DNA from: Patiria pectinifera
Lineage: Eukaryota; Echinodermata; Asteroidea; Valvatida; Asterinidae
NCBI GenBank assembly: GCA_029964075.1
Contig: CM057141.1
Location: forward strand, 9,114,001-9,178,000
Reading direction: 5' to 3'
Length of the DNA stretch: 64,000 nt
The notes beneath the pieces are model-generated. The model was not told where the DNA came from. It ran no database searches and was given only the letters and a program-made list of their open reading frames with translations. The translations under genes were made by a program, and so were the position numbers. Below, piece after piece: positions 8,224 through 64,000 of this stretch (the stretch's first letter is position 1; each line of letters starts with the position of its first letter).

Positions 8224-9705
8224 GGCTGTTTCGGCACTTTTGCCGAAACAGCCTTTGTTTTTGTTAAGATTTTTCTTTTTTTCTTTTATTGTTTTTTTTT
8301 CTTTTCTTCTTTTTCAGCCATTCCCCATAGCATTTGTACACGTTTTTACAGTGGAAGGCACTTTGGGCACTAAAATCAATCCGATTGACTTAATACTTGG
8401 CACACACTTAGACTAGCATCTGAAGATGTGCCCCGAAGATTGACGTCATGGTGACGTCATCGACTAATTTATTATAGAATTTTGAATATTAAATTTTTCC
8501 CATAGACTTTGTACACAGAAATAAAACAAAAATTGTCGATTTTCAAAGGGCATTTTTGACTCTTTGCCAGTAATTCATTTGCACCAATCTTTGTCTAAGC
8601 AATGAACCTAATTCAAACAACATTGTGTAATGATGACGTCATGATGACATCATCCGGTGTGTATTTATAGGCAATTAAATTGTGACACTTTTAATATTTA
8701 AAAATGCATAAGAAATCAACCGTACGCGTCCGCAGCATTCTGTTACCGGCAAGTGGTAGAGTAGGTTGAGGTCTTTATTTCATTCAGTGTGCGTGAAATC
8801 ACGTGACCCTTGCTTCCGGTCGAAAAAGGCCAAAACTGGAAGTGGCTTATTATTTGAAAATGGTAATAGATATGAACTTACTTTTAACGGTGTTAGTCTC
8901 TTGGCTAAAAGTATTTTTGAAATCATCTACCAATGACGTCATGCAATCTTCAAGCGCCCTCTAGCGACAGGTTGAAAATTTGCAAAAATGTATTTTGAAT
9001 AGATGTCCATGGCAAAGTTTGTTTGAATTGCCTAAATATTGGTGTATATGATGATCTTGACCCACTTAAGACGTGTGCGACGTTTTAGGCGAATGGCGTC
9101 ATCAGACCGGAATTTATAATAAAAAGACCCTTTTTCATTTGAAAATTCCTGAAAAATTAACCATGGCAGTTTTTATGTTAGTTTTTACTTTAATTGTCGA
9201 TTTAAGGGTAGGTCTAAAACATTTCAAAGCTTCGAGGCAAAAAGCGAACTCGGACATGCCCTGCGCACGCTTAAAACTTCAGGTTGACAATACCTTTGCT
9301 CTAAAACATGCACAGAACGTCTATATGTACATTCACGTACGTTACGCACATAATAATAATAATAAAAGAACATTTGTAAAGCGCCGGTATCCGCCAAAAA
9401 TAGGCGCTCATGGCGCTCGAGGAGAAAGTCAAGTTAGGATTGTGTATTGTGAGAGTAAGCTTGTTTGTACAGGTGAGATTTCATGTTTGTCTTAAATTTT
9501 GTGATGGATGGTACATCGTATGTCAGTGAGCCTGCAGAGCACGTGTTGCCGGGGTCAAATCCTGTCCACATCACAGTGACCGTTTTAGCCGATTTTTGGC
9601 TAACTTTGACAGATTTTATGTTCATGCATGCGCATAGTCAGGGACGTATAATAAAAAATCATAATGGCGAAACAGCCCTATGTTTGTCCACAAACATATG
9701 TCTAG
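8224..9705 (+). mobile_element. Non-autonomous Helentron-like element, copy A
   Basis: The element starts with a near-perfect palindrome (arms GGCTGTTTCGGC and GCCGAAACAGCC, loop ACTTTT, 8224-8253). Near the right end is an inverted half copy GGCGAAACAGCC (9666-9677). It finishes with a hairpin (ATGTTTGT, loop CC, ACAAACAT, 9680-9697), four bases and CTAG at 9702-9705. It is flanked by T on both sides with no duplication. A 3' hairpin followed by CTRR, subterminal inverted repeats and T-T insertion are features of Helitron2/Helentron-type rolling-circle elements. The body is non-coding and aligns by eye with copies C and D near the right end of the window. It carries a LINE 3'-tail insertion at 9351-9511. 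Confidence 0.75.
9351..9511 (-). mobile_element. LINE 3'-end fragment inserted in Helentron-like copy A
   Basis: Relative to copies C and D this segment is extra. On the - strand it ends with GCGCTTTACAAATG and a TTATTATTATT tail, and contains GGCGGATACCGGCGC. The LINE tail at 10785-10880 shares this organisation (GCGCCATGAGCG, GGCGGATACCAGCGC, TTA repeats). It is therefore a strongly 5'-truncated retrotransposed LINE end, antisense to its host element. Confidence 0.65.
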
Positions 9706-46075: not shown

Positions 46076-47747
46076 GGCTGTTTCGGCAACCAGCCGAAAC
46101 AGCCTTTGTTTTTGTTAAGATTTTTTTCTTCACTCATTTTTTGTGTTCACTGTACTTTGGCCACTTGAACCAACCAATTGTGTTTATACTTCGCAAAGAT
46201 TTAGACCAGCACCTGAAGATGTGTGCCGAACATTGACATCATTATGAGTCGCGTGACGTCACAATATAGGTGCATATTTTTGAAGGCATATATCTCCATA
46301 TCTATCTATCTCTATATCTACGGGTCCAATTGAGTTGAAACTTGGTATGTACCTAGTCCGGGATGTGTTATAGATGAAAATTTGAGTGACATCACTATGA
46401 CGTCATCACATAACATGTTATGTCATATTAAAAGTGCATATTTTGAAGGCCAATATTTACAGAACTACAGCTCTGATTGGTTTGGAACTTCTTAAACTGG
46501 GATGTGTTATAGATGAAAATTTAAGTGACGACACGGTGACGTCATCACATGACATGTGACGTCATATTAAAAGTACATATTTTGGAGGTCAATCAATATC
46601 TTAAAAAATAAAGTCTGATTGGGTGAAATCCTGGTATGTATGTACATGTAGCACAGGAAGCGTTATAGATGGAAAATTCAAGTGATGTCACGGTGACATC
46701 ATCACGTGACGTTTGATGTCATATTAAAAGTGAATATTTTGAGGGCCAATATCTACAGAACTACAGGTCTGATTTGGTTGAAACTCATATGGAGAACTTT
46801 GCCACCCATATGTGCAGAAAATCAAAGCCCTGCATGCTCTGCGGTCACACACAACGGTGCATTGACCCGGTGACCTTCACAGCCCCACTGCGTAGACCGG
46901 ACTATACATAAATAACAGGTCGATCCTCAGAACAAAAGTGATGTCTGACTTGACAAGAAAAGTGCCCCTTTTTCTTCTCAACCAATCAAAACGGTTGGAA
47001 CATGAAAGGAAAGCTTATTGTGTTCTCTTTCAGAAACCGTGCGAGGTAATTGTATGCGACTGGGTTCACACGTGTGCCATTCGAAGAAGTAAACCCGCAC
47101 CCTCAAAAATCGGGGAAATGTGCCGTGACCTCCATAGGAAACGCGAAATTTTCACTGAGTTGCCCGTTTTTCGATGGAAAAGTGCACATAATTATTCACC
47201 TTTAATCATGAAGAAATCATATTCATGTGAAAGAGGAAAATCTATATTTTGTGATGCAATGCGAGGGAGTAAGTTTAACCGACACACTTTCCGCATATTA
47301 ATGAAAGTTTGCTCAGAGCGCCTAGACATGAGCCAGTCTTCCCACGTAAACAGAGCTGCACTAGTGGCGAGTGAGCAAATGCTCCCTAGTTCTCCATATG
47401 TGGTATGTACCTACCCCCGAATGTGTTATAGATGAAAATGTAAGTGACGTCATGATGAAGTCATCATGTTACATGTGACATCACATTAAAAGCACATATT
47501 TTGAAGGACTGTATCTACAGAACAACATGTCTGATTGGGTTGATGGTTGGTATGTACTTTAGACCAGGATAAATGAAAATTGAAGTGAGGTCATGATGAC
47601 GTCATCGAAGGCCAATATCTACAGAACTGTATGGGTCCTGATCACTCTACAGCACATGTTGTCCTATCAGTCTTACATGACATAAAAGTACAACAAAATA
47701 ATTACCTAAACAGCCGTATGCTTACACACAAACATCAGTAAATCTAG
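46076..47747 (+). mobile_element. Non-autonomous Helentron-like element, copy B, with internal minisatellite
   Basis: The 5' palindrome has arms GGCTGTTTCGGC and GCCGAAACAGCC with loop AACCA (46076-46104), as in copy A. The right end shows AAACAGCC, a decayed hairpin (47718-47735, ATGCTTAC/AACAT type) and CTAG at 47744-47747. T flanks both sides. The first 170 bp resemble copy A; the body is a run of units of about 140-150 bp with GGATGTGTTATAGATGAAAA, GACGTCATCACAT and GGCCAATATCTACAGAACTA, present in at least four full or partial copies. One unit is interrupted at 46786-47400 by another insertion. No element protein. Confidence 0.68.
46786..47400. mobile_element. 615-bp insert with CATATGGAGAACT ends and no target duplication
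   Basis: Ends are CATATGGAGAACT (46786-46798) and its exact reverse complement (47388-47400). The surrounding satellite unit reads AAACT before and TGGTATGTAC after, while an uninterrupted unit at about 46338-46350 reads AAACTTGGTATGTAC. The empty site is therefore recovered exactly with no bases duplicated. An open frame of 165 codons (46938-47435) covers most of the insert but runs out of its right end and has no recognised domain. Confidence 0.7.
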
Positions 47748-47749
47748 TT

Positions 47750-47880
47750 GGCTTTTTCGCAAAATTGCAAAAAAGCCATTGGTTTTTGTTCTGATTTTTT
47801 CCCCCTCCTTTGTACGAAAAATCCCATAGACCTTGTACACAAGTTTGTCTACATGCGACTTTTGGCATTCATCTTTGTCA
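47750..47880 (+). mobile_element. Helentron-like 5'-end fragment, copy F
   Basis: Starting two bases after the CTAG of copy B, the palindrome GGCTTTTTCGCAA ... TTGCAAAAAAGCC (47750-47777, one mismatch in 13 pairs) is followed by TTTTTGTTCTGATTTTTT and CCCATAGACCTTGTACAC. The last phrase also occurs in copies A, C and D shortly after their 5' ends. The copy is cut off near 47880. Confidence 0.6.
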
Positions 47881-51293: not shown

Positions 51294-51971
51294 TTGTCAT
51301 TGCCACTTGTCAGTATTTTACCTGAGTGTAACTCGGCTCACTCGGCAGGGAAACCTGCATCCATTGCACCTATTATTGGCGATGGAAACTGTTTCTTTAG
51401 GACTCTCAGTTATTTAGTTACAGGAAGTGAAAGATATCATGGTGAATTGCGAGGTTTGGTTGTGTCCCACATGAATGTTATCAGGATGCCTGTGGAGAAG
51501 TTTTGCTTTGATGAAAGGACGTCTCTACCAGTTCATATAGCTCAGAGTAATATGTTACAGGATGGTTCATGGGCCACTGATGTGGAGATATTTACTGCTG
51601 CTCATCTTTTAGGGACAGATATTTATGTTTACTCAGCTGGAAACAACAACACTGCAAATCCCAGATGGCATAAATTTACAGGAAAGATGCTCGATAGAAA
51701 TGCCCAAGTCAGTGACCGATCATTCTATATTCATCACAAGAATGGTAACCATTATGGGGCAGTATTGAGCATTCATCAGTCTGGTAAAACATCTCTCTTG
51801 GAGATGCGCACTGAAAACAGCACAACAGAATTTACTTGGCTTGTACGGGAATTCAACCATCAACTACAATTTGCTTCTAAGAAACAACAGGTCAATGTCA
51901 AGTGCCAATCATCTACACAGATGGATAAACATCACTTCAGTCAAACTCCCAAAACAATGGAAAAACACTAG
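51294..51971 (+). pseudogene. OTU-type cysteine protease domain of Helentron-like element
   Basis: The 225-codon frame carries an OTU domain: IIGDGNCFFRTLSYLV with Asp30 and catalytic Cys33, WATDVEIFTAAHLLGTDIYVY in the middle, and GNHYGAVLSI with catalytic His153. OTU domains cleave ubiquitin-like conjugates. A fused or neighbouring OTU domain is a known trait of Helentron/Helitron2-group elements and of some other retroelements. All catalytic residues are intact. Downstream, in other frames, follow a basic repeat region and the Rep domain on the same strand. The domain may have been part of one large polyprotein in the intact element. The upstream frame is broken, so I treat it as a pseudogene part. 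Confidence 0.8.
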
Positions 51972-52039
51972 ACAAATCAAAATCTCCTATGTAGTGAATC
52001 AAGTCAAACAGTACAAATGGAAGAAAGCAAGATGAAACT

Positions 52040-52390
52040 TAAAGAGAAAAAAATCACCTGAGAAAGCAACTGAGACAAAAAGACCCAGAATTTAGGAAAA
52101 AGGAAGCTGTTTGGGAAAGCAATTACAAAAAGAAGAGAAGAGATGTTTCAGAGATCAGAGACAGAGAGAAGGCGAAAGAATTAGAAAGTATACATCGAAG
52201 AAGAAGTATCCAACACTACAGAAGTAAAGAAAAAGAATTAGAAAGTGTACAAAGAAGGAGAAGTCACCCAGACTACAGAAGTAAAGAAAAAGAAAAACAA
52301 TTCGAAAGTGTACAAAGAAGAAGTAACCCAGACTACAGAAGTAAAGAAAAAGAATTAGAAAGTATACAAAGCACCAGGAAAAGGTAATCA
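52040..52390 (+). pseudogene. Basic tandem-repeat region ahead of Rep domain
   Basis: One frame reads through KKEAVWESNYKKKRRD and then repeats RSKEKELESVQRRR with PDY between, three to four times. The DNA forms a minisatellite of about 50-66 bp (52190-52375). Arg/Lys-rich segments of this form precede the Rep domain in many Helitron-like proteins and contact DNA. A stop occurs at about 52387. Confidence 0.65.
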
Positions 52391-52496
52391 TCCCATCAAT
52401 ATTTTCTTTGATAAAGATTGTGAGGAGAAGTAATTTCCCACCCTCTCTTGTGGTAAACATAGGCTGGATAATGAACAACGCACACTCCGCTCATCT

Positions 52497-53690
52497 CCAC
52501 CTTATTGGCAGGCTCGCCAAAAAGACATCTTTGCCATGATCCGCCAGTTGGGCATACCAACATTTTTCAGATCGTTCTCTGCTGCAGAAACAAAATGGAC
52601 AGACCTACTGCAGAACTCAAGTCTCAGTGTCACTGGAAAAATTCTCTCTGTACTGATCAAGATATCTTGAATTTGACTTGGCAGCAAAAGTCTGAATTAA
52701 TTCAGAGTGATCCAGTATTAAGTGCTAGGCATTTTGATCACAGAGTTCAGGTGTTCTTTCATGGTGTACTCAAATCTACTCTTTCTCCGATTTGACAAAT
52801 TGATGACTTTTTCTACAAGGTAGAGTTTCAGCAGCGTGGCTCTCCACACATACATTACTTATTTTGGATCAAAGGTGCTCCACAGCATGGAAGGGATGCT
52901 GATGATGATGTCATCGAGTTCATAGATAAATACATTACCTGTAAAAGACACACTGAAGATGCTGAGCTTAATGAGATATCCAAATTACATGAACACAAAC
53001 ACACAAGGACCTGTAAAAAAGGTGGCAAACTTGTATGTAGATTTGGATTTCCAGTTCCTCCAATGTCTGCTGGTTCAATTCTTGAGCCCCTGCCTGATGA
53101 TTTGCCACCTGAAGCAAAAGCAAAACACCAGCAAAATTATGACAAAATAAAGCAACAGTTATACTTAATGCAATGTGGTGAAAATATTTCTTTTGAAGAA
53201 CTGTTATCACAGTTAAAACTATCACAGGATGAATATGTTTGGGCAGTACGTTCTTCACTGAAGAAGTCACAAGTTTTTCTGAAACGAACTCCAATGGAAA
53301 TCCGTACGAATATGCGTAATGATGCATGTGCCCGAATTTGGCAAGCAAACACAGATTTGCAGTACATATTAGATGCTTATGGCTGTGTTGTCTACATTAC
53401 TTCCTATATGCTGAAAAGCCAAAGAGGTATGAGTCTCCTTCTCAACCAAGCATGTGAAGACGTAAAACGAGGCAACTATGGTGTCAAGTAACAAATCAAG
53501 TTCATGGCAAATAAATTTCTGAACCACTGTGAGATATCTGCTCAAGAAGCTGTTTATCTACTTCTTCAACTTCCGTTGAGTAGGGCAAGTCGGGATACAG
53601 TTTTCATCAATACTTCTCCTGAATGTAAATGTGTTGTCATCATTAAAAAGGGCATCATTCTGGACCAAATGCTTGAGAACTGAACCTACA
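52497..53690 (+). pseudogene. HUH-type Rep nuclease (Helitron-like N-terminal) with two Tyr
   Basis: Frames in sequence show [18 protein letters not shown] and [12 protein letters not shown] (the Helitron-like N-domain), FDHRVQVFFHGVL, then FQQRGSPHIHYLFW with the His-x-His metal motif at 52848-52856. Next come HEHKHTRTCKKGGKLVCRFGFP and finally VVYITSYMLKSQ with Tyr at 53393 and 53405, the two-tyrosine motif. The Rep nicks DNA at the element ends and starts rolling-circle transfer. At least two frameshifts lie between the His and Tyr motifs. The PIF1-like helicase that should follow is absent; a few residues (NTSPECKCVVIIKKG) hint at the sequence leading to it. Catalytic motifs are remarkably well kept for a broken copy. 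Confidence 0.85.
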
Positions 53691-53698
53691 AAGTTCTG

Positions 53699-54031
53699 AT
53701 GTTCTCATTTTTCAAGAGTCATGGGAGAAGTCCACAGACAGTAAAGATCACTATAAACTTAACTTCGCAATTACTGTTCAAGGAAACATTTGCTCTCAAC
53801 AACTGGATGGAAGTCATTGGTGTCAGCACTGAAAACAATGACACTGCAAGACTTATTACTTTGATATCAACCAAGTATGGCCTGCATCAACTCATCCACA
53901 AACCAACAACAGATTATGGTTCTACACTTGACCTCATCTTCACAAACCTGGATACAGATAAGCTTCATGCAGGGACACTAGAAAGCTGGTATTCTGATCA
54001 CAAGCCAACGTGGATAGCCATTCGAGATTAG
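53699..54031 (+). pseudogene. C-terminal endonuclease remnant of Helentron-like element
   Basis: The 110-codon frame ends with YGLHQLIHKPTTDYGSTLDLIF followed by WYSDHKPTWIAIRD and a stop. STLDLIFTN and SDHKP are the closing motifs (including the catalytic Asp-His) of the exonuclease-endonuclease-phosphatase fold. Helentrons carry such a LINE-like endonuclease after their helicase. Here it follows the Rep part directly, so a deletion has removed the helicase and the endonuclease start. The stop at 54029-54031 is probably the natural end. A piece of an APE-type LINE would be the alternative reading. Confidence 0.65.
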
Positions 54032-59211: not shown

Positions 59212-59241
59212 TCAGCAGGCCTTTCAGCAGACGCTGCCTCA

Positions 59242-59796
59242 TTGGCAGCCCAAGGCCGCAGACTGTCTACCCGTCGAACTTACGACAGCCGATTACGACA
59301 TTATCATAGGTGGTGTGAAGATCAAATTCATGATCCATGCACAACACCTTTAGCAGTGGTAGGAGACTTCCTCATGCACCTGTTCCATGAGGATCTGACG
59401 GTATCCACTATTCGGGGCTACAGATCAGCCATAGCGGCTGTCCATAAGGGATTCCCGGATGGATCTACGGTGTCGGATAATGCTAGCCTGACTCAGCTCA
59501 TGCGGGGGATGTTCGTTGAGAGGCCTCCATCTCAGAAGCTGGTTCCGTCTTGGGATCTGGCACAGGTCCTTCAGGTCTTGGCGGGACCGCCACATGAACC
59601 TATGGTTAACGCCTCTTTGTTCAACCTATCCGTCAAAACGGTCTTCCTGTTAGCCACGGCCACGGCTAGACGAAGAAGTGAGATTCATGCCCTTTCGGTG
59701 GAACCGGGACATATCCGATGGGAACCCAACTGGGTACGACTGGTGCCTCGTCATGGGTGTTTAACGAAGAATCAATCTCCATCCTTCTTCCTGTAG
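59242..59796 (+). pseudogene. Second DIRS-like element: tyrosine recombinase, 3'-truncated
   Basis: 184 codons begin with RRLSTRRTYDSRLRHYHRWC, the SAM-like DNA-binding N-domain, and go on with STIRGYRSAIAAVHKGFPDG and LMRGMFVERPP. The first catalytic region is present as FLLATATARRRSEIHALS, with the conserved Arg. The frame ends before the HxxR and Tyr motifs, which are absent downstream. The enzyme integrates circular cDNA. The truncation and the polymerase deletion make this element non-autonomous. Similar to but distinct from the recombinase at 1535-2613 and on the opposite strand. Confidence 0.85.
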
Positions 59797-60976: not shown

Positions 60977-61093
60977 AGCTGTTCCCAATTTCAATTGGGA
61001 ACAGCTCTTGTTTTCGTTTTTAGCTGTTCCCAATTTCAATTGGGAACAGCTCTTGTTTTCGTTAAAGTTTTTTTTTTTCCTTTTTTTTTTTTT
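60977..61093 (+). mobile_element. Two stacked Helentron-like 5' termini
   Basis: Two copies of the palindrome (arms AGCTGTTCCCAATT and AATTGGGAACAGCT, loop TC) lie at 60977-61006 and 61022-61051. Each is followed by CTTGTTTTCGTT and then, within 15 and 42 bases, by the next palindrome. They are cut-off 5' ends of the same subfamily as copy C, each interrupted at a T by the next insertion. Confidence 0.85.
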
Positions 61094-62500
61094 AGCTGTT
61101 CCCAATTTCAATTGGGAACAGCTCTTGTTTTCGTTAAAGTTTTTTTTTTTCCTTTTTTTTTTTTTCTTTTTTTTTCTTTTTCCACTTTTCCCCATAGGTT
61201 TTGTACACGTTTTTATTCTACAAGCCACTTTGGCAATTATTTTAAATCCGATCAACTTTAAACTCAGCATAGTTATTAACCATCATTTGAGGATGTATGC
61301 CGAAACTTTTTGTCATGCTGACGTCATCACGTGATTTATTATAGAATTTTGAATATTTAATTTTTCCCATAGACTTTGTACACAGAAATTTAAAAAAAAA
61401 TGTCAATTTTCAGAGGGCATTTTCGACTCTTTGCCAGTAATTCATTTACACCAATCTTTGTCCAAGCAAAGACCCTTACTCAAACAGCATTGTGTAATGA
61501 TGACGTCACGATGACGTCATCCAGTGTTTATTTATAGGCAATTAAATTGTTACACTTTTAAAATTTAAAAATGCATAAGAAATCAACCGTACGCGTCCGC
61601 AGCATTCTGTTGCCGGCAAGTGGTAGAGTAGGTTGAGGTCTTTATTTCATTCAGTGTGCGTGAAATCACATGACCCTTGCTTCCGGTCGAAAAAGGCCAA
61701 AACCGGAAGTGGCTTATTATTTAAAAGTGGTAATAGATATGAACTTGCTTTCAACGGTGTTAGTCTCTTGGCTGATAGTATTCTTCAAATCATTTACCAA
61801 TGACGTCATGCAATCTTCGAGCGCCCTCTAGTGACAGGTTGAAAATGTTCAAAAATGTATTTTGAATAGATGTCTGTGGCGAAGTTTGTCGGAATCGCCT
61901 AAATATTGGTGTATATGATGACCTTGACCCACTTAAGACGTGTGCGAAGTTTCAGGTGTATGACGTCATCAGACCGGAAGTTATAATGAAAAGACCCTTT
62001 TTCCTTAGAAAATTCCTGAAAAATCAACCATGGCAGTTTTTATATTAGTTTTTACTTTAATTGTCGATTTAAGGGTAGGTCTAAAACATTTCAAAGCTTC
62101 GAGGCAATTAGCAAACTCGAACATGCCCCGCGCACGCTTAAAACTTCAGGTTGACAATACCTCTGCTTTAAAATATGCACAGGACGTCCACAGTGTACAT
62201 GTACCTGCACGTACATTGTACGTTGTACAAATCGTATGTCAGTCAGCCCGCGCGCAGCGCATGTGTTGCCAAGGTCAATTCCTGTCCACAGTGACCGTTT
62301 TAGCCGATTTCCGGCTAACTTTGACAGATTTCATGTTCATGCATAGTGATAGTCAGGGACGTTGATAAAAACAAATCATAATGCGGAAAGCCCTATCTTC
62401 TGTTGCAAAAAGACATAGATCTCTACTTATATGTCTATGGGTCCAACAGATAATCAATATTGGGAACAGCTCTGTGGTTGTTCACAACCACAATTTCTAG
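61094..62500 (+). mobile_element. Non-autonomous Helentron-like element, copy C
   Basis: 1407 bp. The 5' palindrome (arms AGCTGTTCCCAATT / AATTGGGAACAGCT, loop TC) lies at 61094-61123. The matching subterminal half repeat ATTGGGAACAGCT is at 62459-62471, the 3' hairpin (GTGGTTGT, TC, ACAACCAC) at 62474-62491, and CTAG at 62497-62500. T on both sides. The body aligns with copy A across its full length by eye, minus the LINE fragment, and with copy D. The 111-codon frame at 62030-62365 is also found in copies A and D, but as it decays among copies it need not be coding. Confidence 0.82.
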
Positions 62501-63849
62501 TTTGTTTTTTTTTCTTTTTTTTTCTTTTTCCACTTTTCCCCATAGGTTTTGTACACGTTTTTATTCTACAAGCCACTTTGGCAATTATTTTAAATCCGAT
62601 CAACTTTAAACTCAGCATAGTTATTAACCATCATCTGAGGATGTATGCCGAAACTTTTCGTCATGCTGACGTCATCACGTGATTTATTATAGATTTTTGA
62701 ATATTTAATTTTTCCCATAGACTTTGTACACAGAAATTTCTAAAAAAATGTCGATTTTCAGAGGGCATTTTCAACTCTTTGCCAGTAATTCATTTACACC
62801 AATCTTTGTCCAAGCAAAGACCCTAATTCAAACAACATTGTGTAATGATGACGTCATGATGACGTCATCCGGTGTTTATTTATAGGCAATTGAATAGTGA
62901 CACTTTTAATATTAAAAAATGCATAACAAATCAACCATACGCGTCCGCAGCATTCTGTTGCCGGCAAGTGGTAGAGTAGGTTGAGGTCTTTATTTCATTC
63001 AGTGTGCGTGAAATCACGTGACCCTTGCTTCCGGTCGAAAAAGGCCAAAACCGGAAGTGGCTTCTTATTTGAAAGTGGTAATAGATATGAACTTGCTTTT
63101 AACGGTGTTAGTCTCTTGGCTGATAGTATTCTTCAAATCATCTACCGATGACGTCATGCAATCTTCGAGCGCCCTCTAGCGACAGGTTGAAAATTTTCAA
63201 AAATGTATTTTGAATAGATGTCTGTGGCGAAGTTTGTCGGAATTACCTAAATATTGGTGTATATGATGACCTTGACCCACTTGAGACGTGTGCGAAGTTT
63301 AAGGTGTATGACGTCATCAGACCGGAAGTTATAATGAAAAGACCCTTTTTCCTTAGAAAATTCCTGAAAAATCAACCATGGCAGTTTTTATATTAGTTTT
63401 TACTCTAATTGTCTATTTAAGGGTAGGTCTAAAACATTTCAAAGCTGCAAGGCAATAAGCAAACTCGGACATGCCCTGCGCACGCTTAAAACTTCAGGTT
63501 GACAATACCTCTGCTTTAAAACATGCACAAGACGACCACAATGAACATGTACATGTACATGCACGTACGTTGTACATATCGTATGTCAGTCAGCCCGCGC
63601 ACAGCGCACGTGTTGCTGGGGTCAAATCCTGTCCACAGTGACCGTTTTAGCCGATTTCCGGCTAACTTTGACAGATTTTATGTTCATGCATATAGTCAGG
63701 GACGTTTTATTGATAAAAACAAATCATACTGCGGAAAAGTCCTATCTTCTGTTGCAAACAGACATAGATCTCTACTTATATGTCTATGGGTCCAACAGAT
63801 AATCAATATTGGGAACAGCTCTGTGGTTGTTCACAACCACAATTTCTAG
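62501..63849 (+). mobile_element. Helentron-like element, copy D, lacking the 5' palindrome
   Basis: Follows copy C head to tail. It starts in the T-rich tract that in copy C lies after the palindrome, so its first about 50 bp are missing. It then runs parallel to copy C (CCCATAGGTTTTGTACACG, GACGTCATCACGTGATTTA) to the same end: ATTGGGAACAGCT (63808-63820), hairpin GTGGTTGT/ACAACCAC (63823-63840), CTAG (63846-63849). Differences from copy C are scattered, at the level of a few percent. Confidence 0.82.
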
Positions 63850-63860
63850 TTTTCCTTTTT

Positions 63861-64000
63861 AGCTGTTTCGGTGTACACACCGAAACAGCTCTTGTTTTTG
63901 TTATTTTTAGTTTTTCTCTTTTTTTTTTTTCCACTTTTTTTCTCATAGGATAACACGTGTTTTCGTTCTACAAGTCACTTTTGGCATTTTTTCAAATCCG
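63861..64000 (+). mobile_element. Helentron-like element, copy E, 5' end only (window ends)
   Basis: Starts 11 bases after the CTAG of copy D with a third palindrome version (arms AGCTGTTTCGGTGT and ACACCGAAACAGCT, loop AC, 63861-63890), then CTTGTTTTTGTT and a T-rich tract. GTTCTACAAGTCACTTTTGG follows as in copies C and D. The rest lies outside the window. Confidence 0.75.

What the first reader, a model, noticed from the sequence alone, without database searches (positions are those of the whole stretch)
8224..9705. Helentron-like family with three co-varying terminal structures
Seen directly: six 5' ends in this window fold into 28-30-nt palindromes that differ in sequence but keep pairing. 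Arms are GGCTGTTTCGGC (copies A, B), AGCTGTTCCCAATT (copy C and stacked ends), AGCTGTTTCGGTGT (copy E) and GGCTTTTTCGCAA (copy F). The half repeat near the right end changes with the left palindrome (GGCGAAACAGCC in A, ATTGGGAACAGCT in C and D). The 3' hairpin also shows paired changes (ATGTTTGT/ACAAACAT in A, GTGGTTGT/ACAACCAC in C and D) while the final CTAG is constant. Such coordinated change suggests that an enzyme or replication step demands both the fold and the left-right match, perhaps subfamily-specific recognition or template copying of one end from the other.
Basis: partly seen in the sequence, partly recalled or inferred. Interest (0 to 1): 0.75.

Follow-up and report, generated by a model that had tools for sequence, protein, structure and literature searches.

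The report
Jumping genes that swap matched ends
These are copies of a known kind of rolling-circle jumping gene whose two ends match each other, and in this genome matched pairs of ends have been exchanged around the same middle, probably because the elements keep inserting into one another.

Summary
Bao & Jurka 2013, Yang & Barbash 2008 and Thomas 2014 describe this layout; the first two note compensatory changes.
Added here: (1) palindrome pairing and covariation exceed all 500 shuffles in two alignments; (2) left and right classes agree in 23 of 26 paired copies (6.5 expected; 0 of 10,000 shuffles), but the one-base F/G difference shows no coupling (9 of 15); (3) this is not plain descent: one body (copy A positions 226-1442, 86-97% identical) carries A/A, C/C, F/F or G/G ends, while positions 111-225 are 58-67% identical except between F and G; (4) class-C 'stacked' palindromes look like serial insertions into the T-tract just inside other copies' left ends. 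Six of six C right ends read have an old G right end 79 nt inside; one such copy also keeps the G left palindrome inside a C palindrome.
Matched recognition plus end-pair replacement explains this better than 'template copying': private changes at one end were not mirrored (0 of 4). Rep, PIF1 and otubain genes, with a weak endonuclease, lie beside F/G left ends; no right end was found there.

The parts
8224..8253 (+). copy A left palindrome, class A, 13 bp stem
8224..8448 (+). copy A left terminal module: palindrome, T-tract and about 115 bp; class-specific, similarity to other classes is low up to about A position 225
8449..9665 (+). body shared with copies that carry other end classes (86-97% identical), interrupted in copy A by an extra stretch at about 9353-9511
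9666..9705 (+). copy A right end: half repeat GGCGAAACAGCC, hairpin TATGTTTGT/ACAAACATA, CTAG
46076..46104 (+). copy B left palindrome (class A, shorter stem)
47705..47747 (+). copy B right end, decayed half repeat CCTAAACAGCC and hairpin, CTAG
47750..47777 (+). copy F left palindrome, class F with one broken pair, 2 nt after copy B's CTAG
60977..61006 (+). outermost stacked left palindrome, class C
61022..61093 (+). left-end stub (palindrome and T-tract) inferred to be that of copy D, interrupted by copy C
61094..62500 (+). copy C, complete, class C ends; left palindrome 61094-61123
62380..62426 (+). relict G-class right end inside copy C, terminal CTAG reads CTAC
62459..62500 (+). copy C right end: ATTGGGAACAGCT, hairpin GTGGTTGT/ACAACCAC, CTAG
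62501..63849 (+). copy D, rest of the older element into whose T-tract copy C inserted; right end 63808-63849, with a relict G right end before it
63861..63890 (+). copy E left palindrome, class E

Best explanation
The copies are non-autonomous Helentron-type (Helitron2, HINE-like) rolling-circle elements. Shown: each left end is a 28-30-nt palindrome whose 3' arm is repeated, same sequence and same strand, about 30 nt before the right tip, where a hairpin and CTAG follow; right tips are mostly followed by TT; the left palindrome is kept by paired changes; left and right classes match. Inferred: a Rep-helicase nicks at the left palindrome and releases the strand at the right end, and a release site works only (or best) if its half repeat matches the left arm, by one Rep recognising both or by pairing between the two. 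Also shown: class-C copies insert again and again into the T-tract about 53-74 nt inside other copies' left ends, building stacks and nests, and one shared body occurs inside several matched end pairs, in one case with the older G pair still recognisable inside the C pair. Inferred: when an outer pair of ends mobilises a nest, or two copies recombine near the conserved GACGTCATGGTGACGTCATC block, the body gets a new left end and a new right end; matched pairs spread, so the ends appear to change together.
For: Palindrome covariation: 91.6% of cells paired against 79.2 in shuffles, covariation 0.366 against 0.154 (22 distinct 30-mers); 92.9% against 82.9, 0.298 against 0.122 (35 distinct 28-mers); 0 of 500 shuffles reach any of these; slid structures are at most 55.8% paired. 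Coupling: 23 of 26 pairs same class, shuffled mean 6.5, 0 of 10,000. Body shared by A, C, F and G ends, with G/G in L046+L063 and F/F in L030; drop of similarity between the bins 111-225 and 226-290. Body tree: one branch (99/97) separates 31 rows (24 A, 1 F) from 6 (3 C, 1 G). Nesting: exact class-C ends on C1-C6 show left-left spacing 53-74 (17 of 27), left-right 1338-1369 (18 of 32), right-right 1312-1349 (15 of 27), right-left 47-70 (13 of 19); class-C left and right ends are nearly balanced, 544 and 484. Of the 30 loci L001-L030, 13 body matches start at A position 62-84, and 13 of these 13 follow directly on another copy's CTAG. Relict G right end before the C right end in 6 of 6 C right ends read; the one at C2 with CTAG intact also has a G left palindrome directly after a C left palindrome. 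After the right CTAG, TT in 53 of 64 cases. Rep (119 bits), PIF1 (77 bits) and otubain matches beside an F/F/G left-end stack; of 4 listed left ends with the arm TTGCAAAAAAGCC, the 3 on C6 have a Rep match 6.4-8.9 kb downstream on the other strand (noticed afterwards).
Against: F and G, which differ by one base pair, are not coupled in positions-only data (9 of 15 same), and one read copy has a G left and an F right end. Two further covariation measures, the number of pairs with a double change and of pair types, did not exceed the shuffles. One array has 34 left but 9 right ends, so nesting alone is not enough there; loss of bodies or multi-5'-end chimeras are needed. In 5 of 6 C copies the inner G end has lost its CTAG, so for these a bypass cannot be told from a class-specific stop. 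Among the exact class-C ends of C1-C6 no left-right distance under 1,338 was seen, so no small class-C 'shell' without a body. Monophyly of A-ended bodies is not rejected (p 0.448), so only A/A and C/C are secure as separate replacements. No right end of a coding copy was found, and no coding partner for A, C or E. The endonuclease match is weak. The 26 pairs are related copies, not independent events.
Confidence: 0.8

Rival explanations
1. Plain descent: old subfamilies simply differ, and left and right ends match only because whole elements are inherited together.
For: Same-class pairing is expected under descent; body lineages correlate with end class (3 label changes, the minimum for four groups).
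Against: The body is 86-97% identical across classes while positions 111-225 are 58-67% identical outside the F/G pair and the A and C palindromes are 50% identical; relict G ends lie inside C copies. The ends changed by replacement, not by slow divergence.
Confidence: 0.15
2. Template copying: one end is copied from the other during replication, so that changes spread from one end to the other.
For: The half repeat has the same sequence and strand as the left 3' arm.
Against: Private changes at one end were not mirrored at the other in 4 of 4 deviating copies among 11 tested. The hairpin and the left 225 bp change too, which copying of a 12-nt arm does not explain.
Confidence: 0.05
3. Termination bypass: a mutated right end (CTAG to CTAC) lets replication run on to a right end downstream, so the right end changes first and the left end later adapts.
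For: 5 of 6 C right ends read keep a G right end with CTAC 79 nt upstream; bypass is given as the cause of Helitron arrays in a paper.
Against: 1 of 6 has CTAG intact, together with an inner G left palindrome. Bypass does not supply the new left module of about 225 bp. Right-to-right spacing of about 1,340 is an element without its left stub, as nesting predicts, not full head-to-tail units. The found CTAG copy made me lower the odds from 0.2.
Confidence: 0.15
4. Stacked palindromes are tandem duplications by slippage in the T-runs, unrelated to transposition.
For: Units are short (53-74 nt) and T-rich; one array has 34 left but 9 right ends.
Against: Stacks mix classes (E, F, G, C within 17 neighbours); interrupted bodies resume after the inner element's CTAG; class-C left and right totals are nearly equal (544, 484).
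Confidence: 0.1

Closest known systems
Helitron2 with asymmetric terminal inverted repeats (Bao & Jurka 2013, PMC3627910; passages read)
   Same: 5' hairpin built on the left repeat, 3' repeat 20-30 nt inside just before a 3' hairpin, insertion next to T's; compensatory changes noted between two related elements; pairing of the two repeats proposed as the replication end point
   Different: In the passages read two related elements are compared; here classes are counted in one genome and matched end pairs occur around one shared body
Helentrons and HINEs (Thomas et al. 2014, PMC4067079; passages read)
   Same: Palindromic subterminal repeats, 3' stem-loop, T-rich TT target, OTU and EN domains in coding partners; families defined by at least 11 bp of identical repeat; sea urchin members mentioned
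   Different: Non-autonomous copies there are deletion derivatives of a partner; here one body carries several end classes, and stacks of mixed classes occur
DINE-1 (Yang & Barbash 2008, PMC2374699; passages read)
   Same: 3' stem differs between species, which the authors take as compensatory mutations; TT insertion
   Different: Left repeat in DINE-1 is not itself a palindrome; comparison is between species
FoHeli elements of Fusarium oxysporum (PMC5148889; passages read)
   Same: Multiple short 5' termini before one 3' terminus; self-insertion proposed to give nested or composite elements in which inner ends decay and outer ends survive; reversed gene orientation
   Different: In the passages read: few cases and model figures, no matched end classes, spacing test or breakpoint
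Cg_HINE of oyster (PMC7492417; passages read)
   Same: subTIR, complementary repeat and 3' palindrome in 11 elements of one genome
   Different: They carry arrays of tandem repeats; no end exchange in the passages read

Membership tests
Helitron2 / Helentron-type non-autonomous element (HINE) | Left repeat forms a terminal 5' hairpin | tested here: met
Helitron2 / Helentron-type non-autonomous element (HINE) | Inverted copy of the left arm lies subterminally on the right, just before a 3' hairpin | tested here: met
Helitron2 / Helentron-type non-autonomous element (HINE) | Insertion between T's in T-rich DNA, no target duplication | tested here: inconclusive
   TT follows the right CTAG in 53 of 64 cases, and copy D's T-tract is interrupted by copy C with D resuming directly after CTAG; no empty site was compared and T-runs hide short duplications
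Helentron | Rep-helicase with endonuclease domain; OTU protease often present | tested here: inconclusive
   For F/G-class ends only, L067: PF14214 119.4 bits, PIF1 77.2 and PF10275 otubain 27.3 are over their cut-offs; PF02338 OTU 21.1 and PF03372 endonuclease 19.2 (E 0.0011) are under theirs; no solved structure matches the endonuclease frame at E 0.1
Helentron | Coding partner shares both ends with the non-autonomous copies | tested here: inconclusive
   Left stack F/F/G found; no right end in 12.8 kb or in two further flanks; no partner for A, C or E
Canonical Helitron (Helitron1) | 5' TC, 3' CTRR, A-T target, no 5' hairpin | tested here: not met
   Left palindrome present and right tip mostly next to TT; CTAG itself would fit CTRR; the rule

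The most novel reading that the evidence does not exclude
End recognition in these elements is class-specific, so matched left-right end pairs behave as transplantable cassettes: nesting in the left T-tract puts one element inside another, and only the outer pair whose left arm and right half repeat agree can carry the body on. Bodies thus change their mobility 'address' in a coordinated step, and a genome keeps several parallel address systems for the same cargo.
Probability: 0.35. Interest if true: 0.6.

Novelty: new member of a known kind. Interest (0 to 1): 0.42.

Why it matters
Why Helentrons keep a left palindrome and a matching half repeat on the right is an open mechanistic point, with a pairing model from 2013. 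One genome with many hundreds of copies, at least five end classes and the same body behind several of them makes that model directly testable. It also suggests how a non-autonomous element can change both ends at once and so switch partners.

Tried and rejected
Plain descent, template copying and slippage were considered and set back as given under rivals. The coupling table by innermost pairing left three exceptions: a decayed right end with a G-type hairpin, classed '?F', behind a G left end; a G left with an F right end; and a G left inside a class-C stack with a C right end (later seen to be a nest that also keeps its G right end). They are kept as mismatches. Of 63 right ends with CTAG, 37 were not paired because no free left end lay within 3.5 kb upstream in the fetched DNA; these were dropped.

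A positions-only test of F against G gave 9 of 15, no support; it misses G left ends with a TTTC tail. L071, a long-ORF Rep copy, showed none of the known ends. L068-L070 gave no right end. The window's own Rep fragment is only 34% identical to that of L067, so I do not claim that it belongs to copy F. The place of the F/F copy L030 inside the A clade is not significant (AU p 0.448). My note says 38 left and 11 right ends for the C2 array and that the G relict has CTAC in all C copies; the counts are 34 and 9, and 5 of 6.

Searches for print on end exchange and nesting. I saw listings, and passages of five papers; I make no claim that end exchange is absent from print.

Full report
What was checked. 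The window lies on contig C13 of an unnamed 613.5-Mb genome. There are seven left palindromes, not six. Copy A runs 8224-9705. Copy C runs 61094-62500. Copy D (62501-63849) starts directly after copy C's CTAG and equals copy C without its first 59 nt (94.8% identity), so copy C sits inside the T-tract of copy D, whose left end is most likely the palindrome at 61022.

How common it is. A 17-place tail pattern behind the left palindrome has 1,979 hits against 5 for the reversed control. Patterns for whole 30-nt and 28-nt palindromes give 1,381 against 0 and 466 against 1. From the 100 places printed in each (the first in contig order, so not a random sample) I took the distinct palindromes.

Is the fold kept by paired changes? 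Yes. In 22 distinct 30-mers 91.6% of cells pair (shuffles 79.2, sd 1.5) and the covariation score is 0.366 (shuffles 0.154). In 35 distinct 28-mers the figures are 92.9% (82.9, sd 1.1) and 0.298 (0.122). No shuffle of 500 reached these; structures slid by 1-3 columns pair at most 55.8% of cells. Two measures, the number of pairs with a double change and the number of pair types, did not exceed the shuffles (91 and 400, 322 and 444 of 500 as high). Pairs 2-4, 6 and 7 were fixed by the search pattern and say nothing. Related rows count several times.

Does the left class predict the right class? I paired each right end that ends in CTAG with the innermost free left end within 3.5 kb upstream in 49 stretches (268,820 bases). 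Of 63 such right ends 26 could be paired; 23 are of the same class (shuffled mean 6.5, sd 2.1, none of 10,000 as high). The mean match over 12 positions is 10.6 (shuffled 8.8, none as high). The three exceptions are named under Tried and rejected. At the finest level, F against G (one base), a positions-only test gives 9 of 15 and no support. In class E the match covers the outer 10-12 nt, in most copies 10-11, while the left stem pairs further in, so fold and match are partly separate demands.

Is it only descent? No. Body copies were aligned and treed. The same body occurs with A/A ends (window A, L002, L003, L004, L007, L008, L021 and others), C/C (window C and D), F/F (L030) and G/G (L046 with L063). 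Along the element A and C are 67% identical at positions 111-225 and 91-92% at 226-1115; A and F 62% and then 93-97%; A and G (L046) 61% and then 91-93%; C and G 58-59% and then 86-96%; F and G 90% in the left bin. The bins are mine, so the break is placed only roughly; it lies beside the block GACGTCATGGTGACGTCATC. The A and C palindromes are 50% identical. So a left module of about 225 bp has been exchanged, and the right end agrees with it. On the body tree one branch (99/97) separates 31 rows (24 A, 1 F, 6 unlabelled) from 6 (3 C, 1 G, 2 unlabelled); some A labels rest on one end only. Three of 40 rows were left out as duplicates or partial. A-ended bodies as one clade are not rejected (p 0.448). 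I therefore count A/A and C/C as two secure matched replacements and leave L030 open.

Relict ends. All six class-C right ends in the fetched DNA that my scan called (window C and D, two on C20, two on C2) have a G-class right end 79 nt upstream, followed by TT; its CTAG reads CTAC in five and is intact in one. That one, in the C2 array, also has a G left palindrome (8816) directly after a C left palindrome (8763): a G pair nested inside a C pair. The long A copies hold AATGCCGAAAAGCCCTATGTT, one base different from the start of the G right end AATGCGGAAAAGCCCTATGTT, well inside the A right end. Outer E or A left palindromes lie before inner G palindromes in C1:3619104 (L031), C1:6949200 (L041), C1:7009693 (L045) and, with an F between, C1:9282130 (L054).

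Stacks. Exact class-C ends on contigs C1-C6 (71 left and 68 right, taken from the first 100 listed of 544 and of 484) have neighbour spacings with sharp peaks: left-left 53-74 (17 of 27), left-right 1338-1369 (18 of 32), right-right 1312-1349 (15 of 27), right-left 47-70 (13 of 19). A right-right distance of about 1,340 is the element without its left stub, as serial insertion into the T-tract predicts. Of the 30 loci L001-L030, 13 body matches start at A position 62-84, and 13 of 13 follow directly on another copy's CTAG. In an array on C2 (16290001-16309000) 17 left ends of classes E, F, G and C follow each other within 1 kb; that array has 34 left and 9 right ends, one of these a relict, which nesting alone does not explain. 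The Fusarium authors propose self-insertion and chimeras with several 5' ends (PMC5148889), which would.

Partners. PF14214 has 148 matches in the genome, a lower bound. L067 holds Rep, PIF1 helicase, an otubain match and a weak endonuclease match under its cut-off, on the strand opposite to an F/F/G left stack; no solved structure matched the endonuclease frame. Reversed orientation is reported for other elements of this kind. Of four listed left ends with the arm TTGCAAAAAAGCC, the three on C6 have a Rep match 6.4-8.9 kb downstream on the other strand and the one on C2 has none; I noticed this afterwards. No right end of a coding copy was found.

Mechanism. Best reading: Rep acts on the left hairpin and needs a half repeat that matches the left arm to release the strand at the right hairpin and CTAG. 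Either one protein site recognises both, or the two repeats pair as Bao & Jurka proposed. My data do not separate these two. New end classes reach an old body by nesting or by recombination, and matched pairs are what spreads. Steps shown are the fold, the match, the shared body, the drop of similarity and the nesting; the protein's demands, the mobilisation of nests and the order of events are inferred.

Against template copying. Of 11 A and C pairs tested (of 23 same-class pairs) 4 have a private change in the core; none is mirrored at the other end. One of them has a paired change within the left palindrome only. The test is small.

Novelty. The layout, its compensatory changes and composite elements are in print. 

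Noticed in passing
window 51294-54031: Fragments of an OTU protease (PF02338, over cut-off), a Helitron Rep (PF14214, 25.6 bits, under cut-off in this piece) and a weak endonuclease match, all on +, 3.5-6.3 kb after copy F's left end; Rep only 34% identical to L067's.
   Followed up: partly
window 59212-59796: Open frame with a weak phage-integrase SAM-like N-terminal match (PF02899, under cut-off), perhaps part of a tyrosine-recombinase retroelement.
   Followed up: no
window about 9353-9511: Extra stretch in copy A, near a TAA microsatellite, that breaks the match to other copies of the body (A positions 1130-1288).
   Followed up: no
L065/L066, C2:16300150-16301105: Seventeen left ends of four classes in under 1 kb, 34 left against 9 right ends in 19 kb.
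   Followed up: partly
L067, C6:16102400-16112300: Large Helentron-like element with endonuclease-like, helicase, Rep and otubain frames in reversed orientation to its left ends, plus a DUF6570 domain.
   Followed up: partly
window 8439-8461: GACGTCATGGTGACGTCATC block, similar blocks recur in the bodies, lies where end modules switch; it may be a recombination or binding site.
   Followed up: no
right ends listed: Among the 100 F/G right ends printed, half repeat and hairpin base go together in 90 and are mixed in 10.
   Followed up: partly
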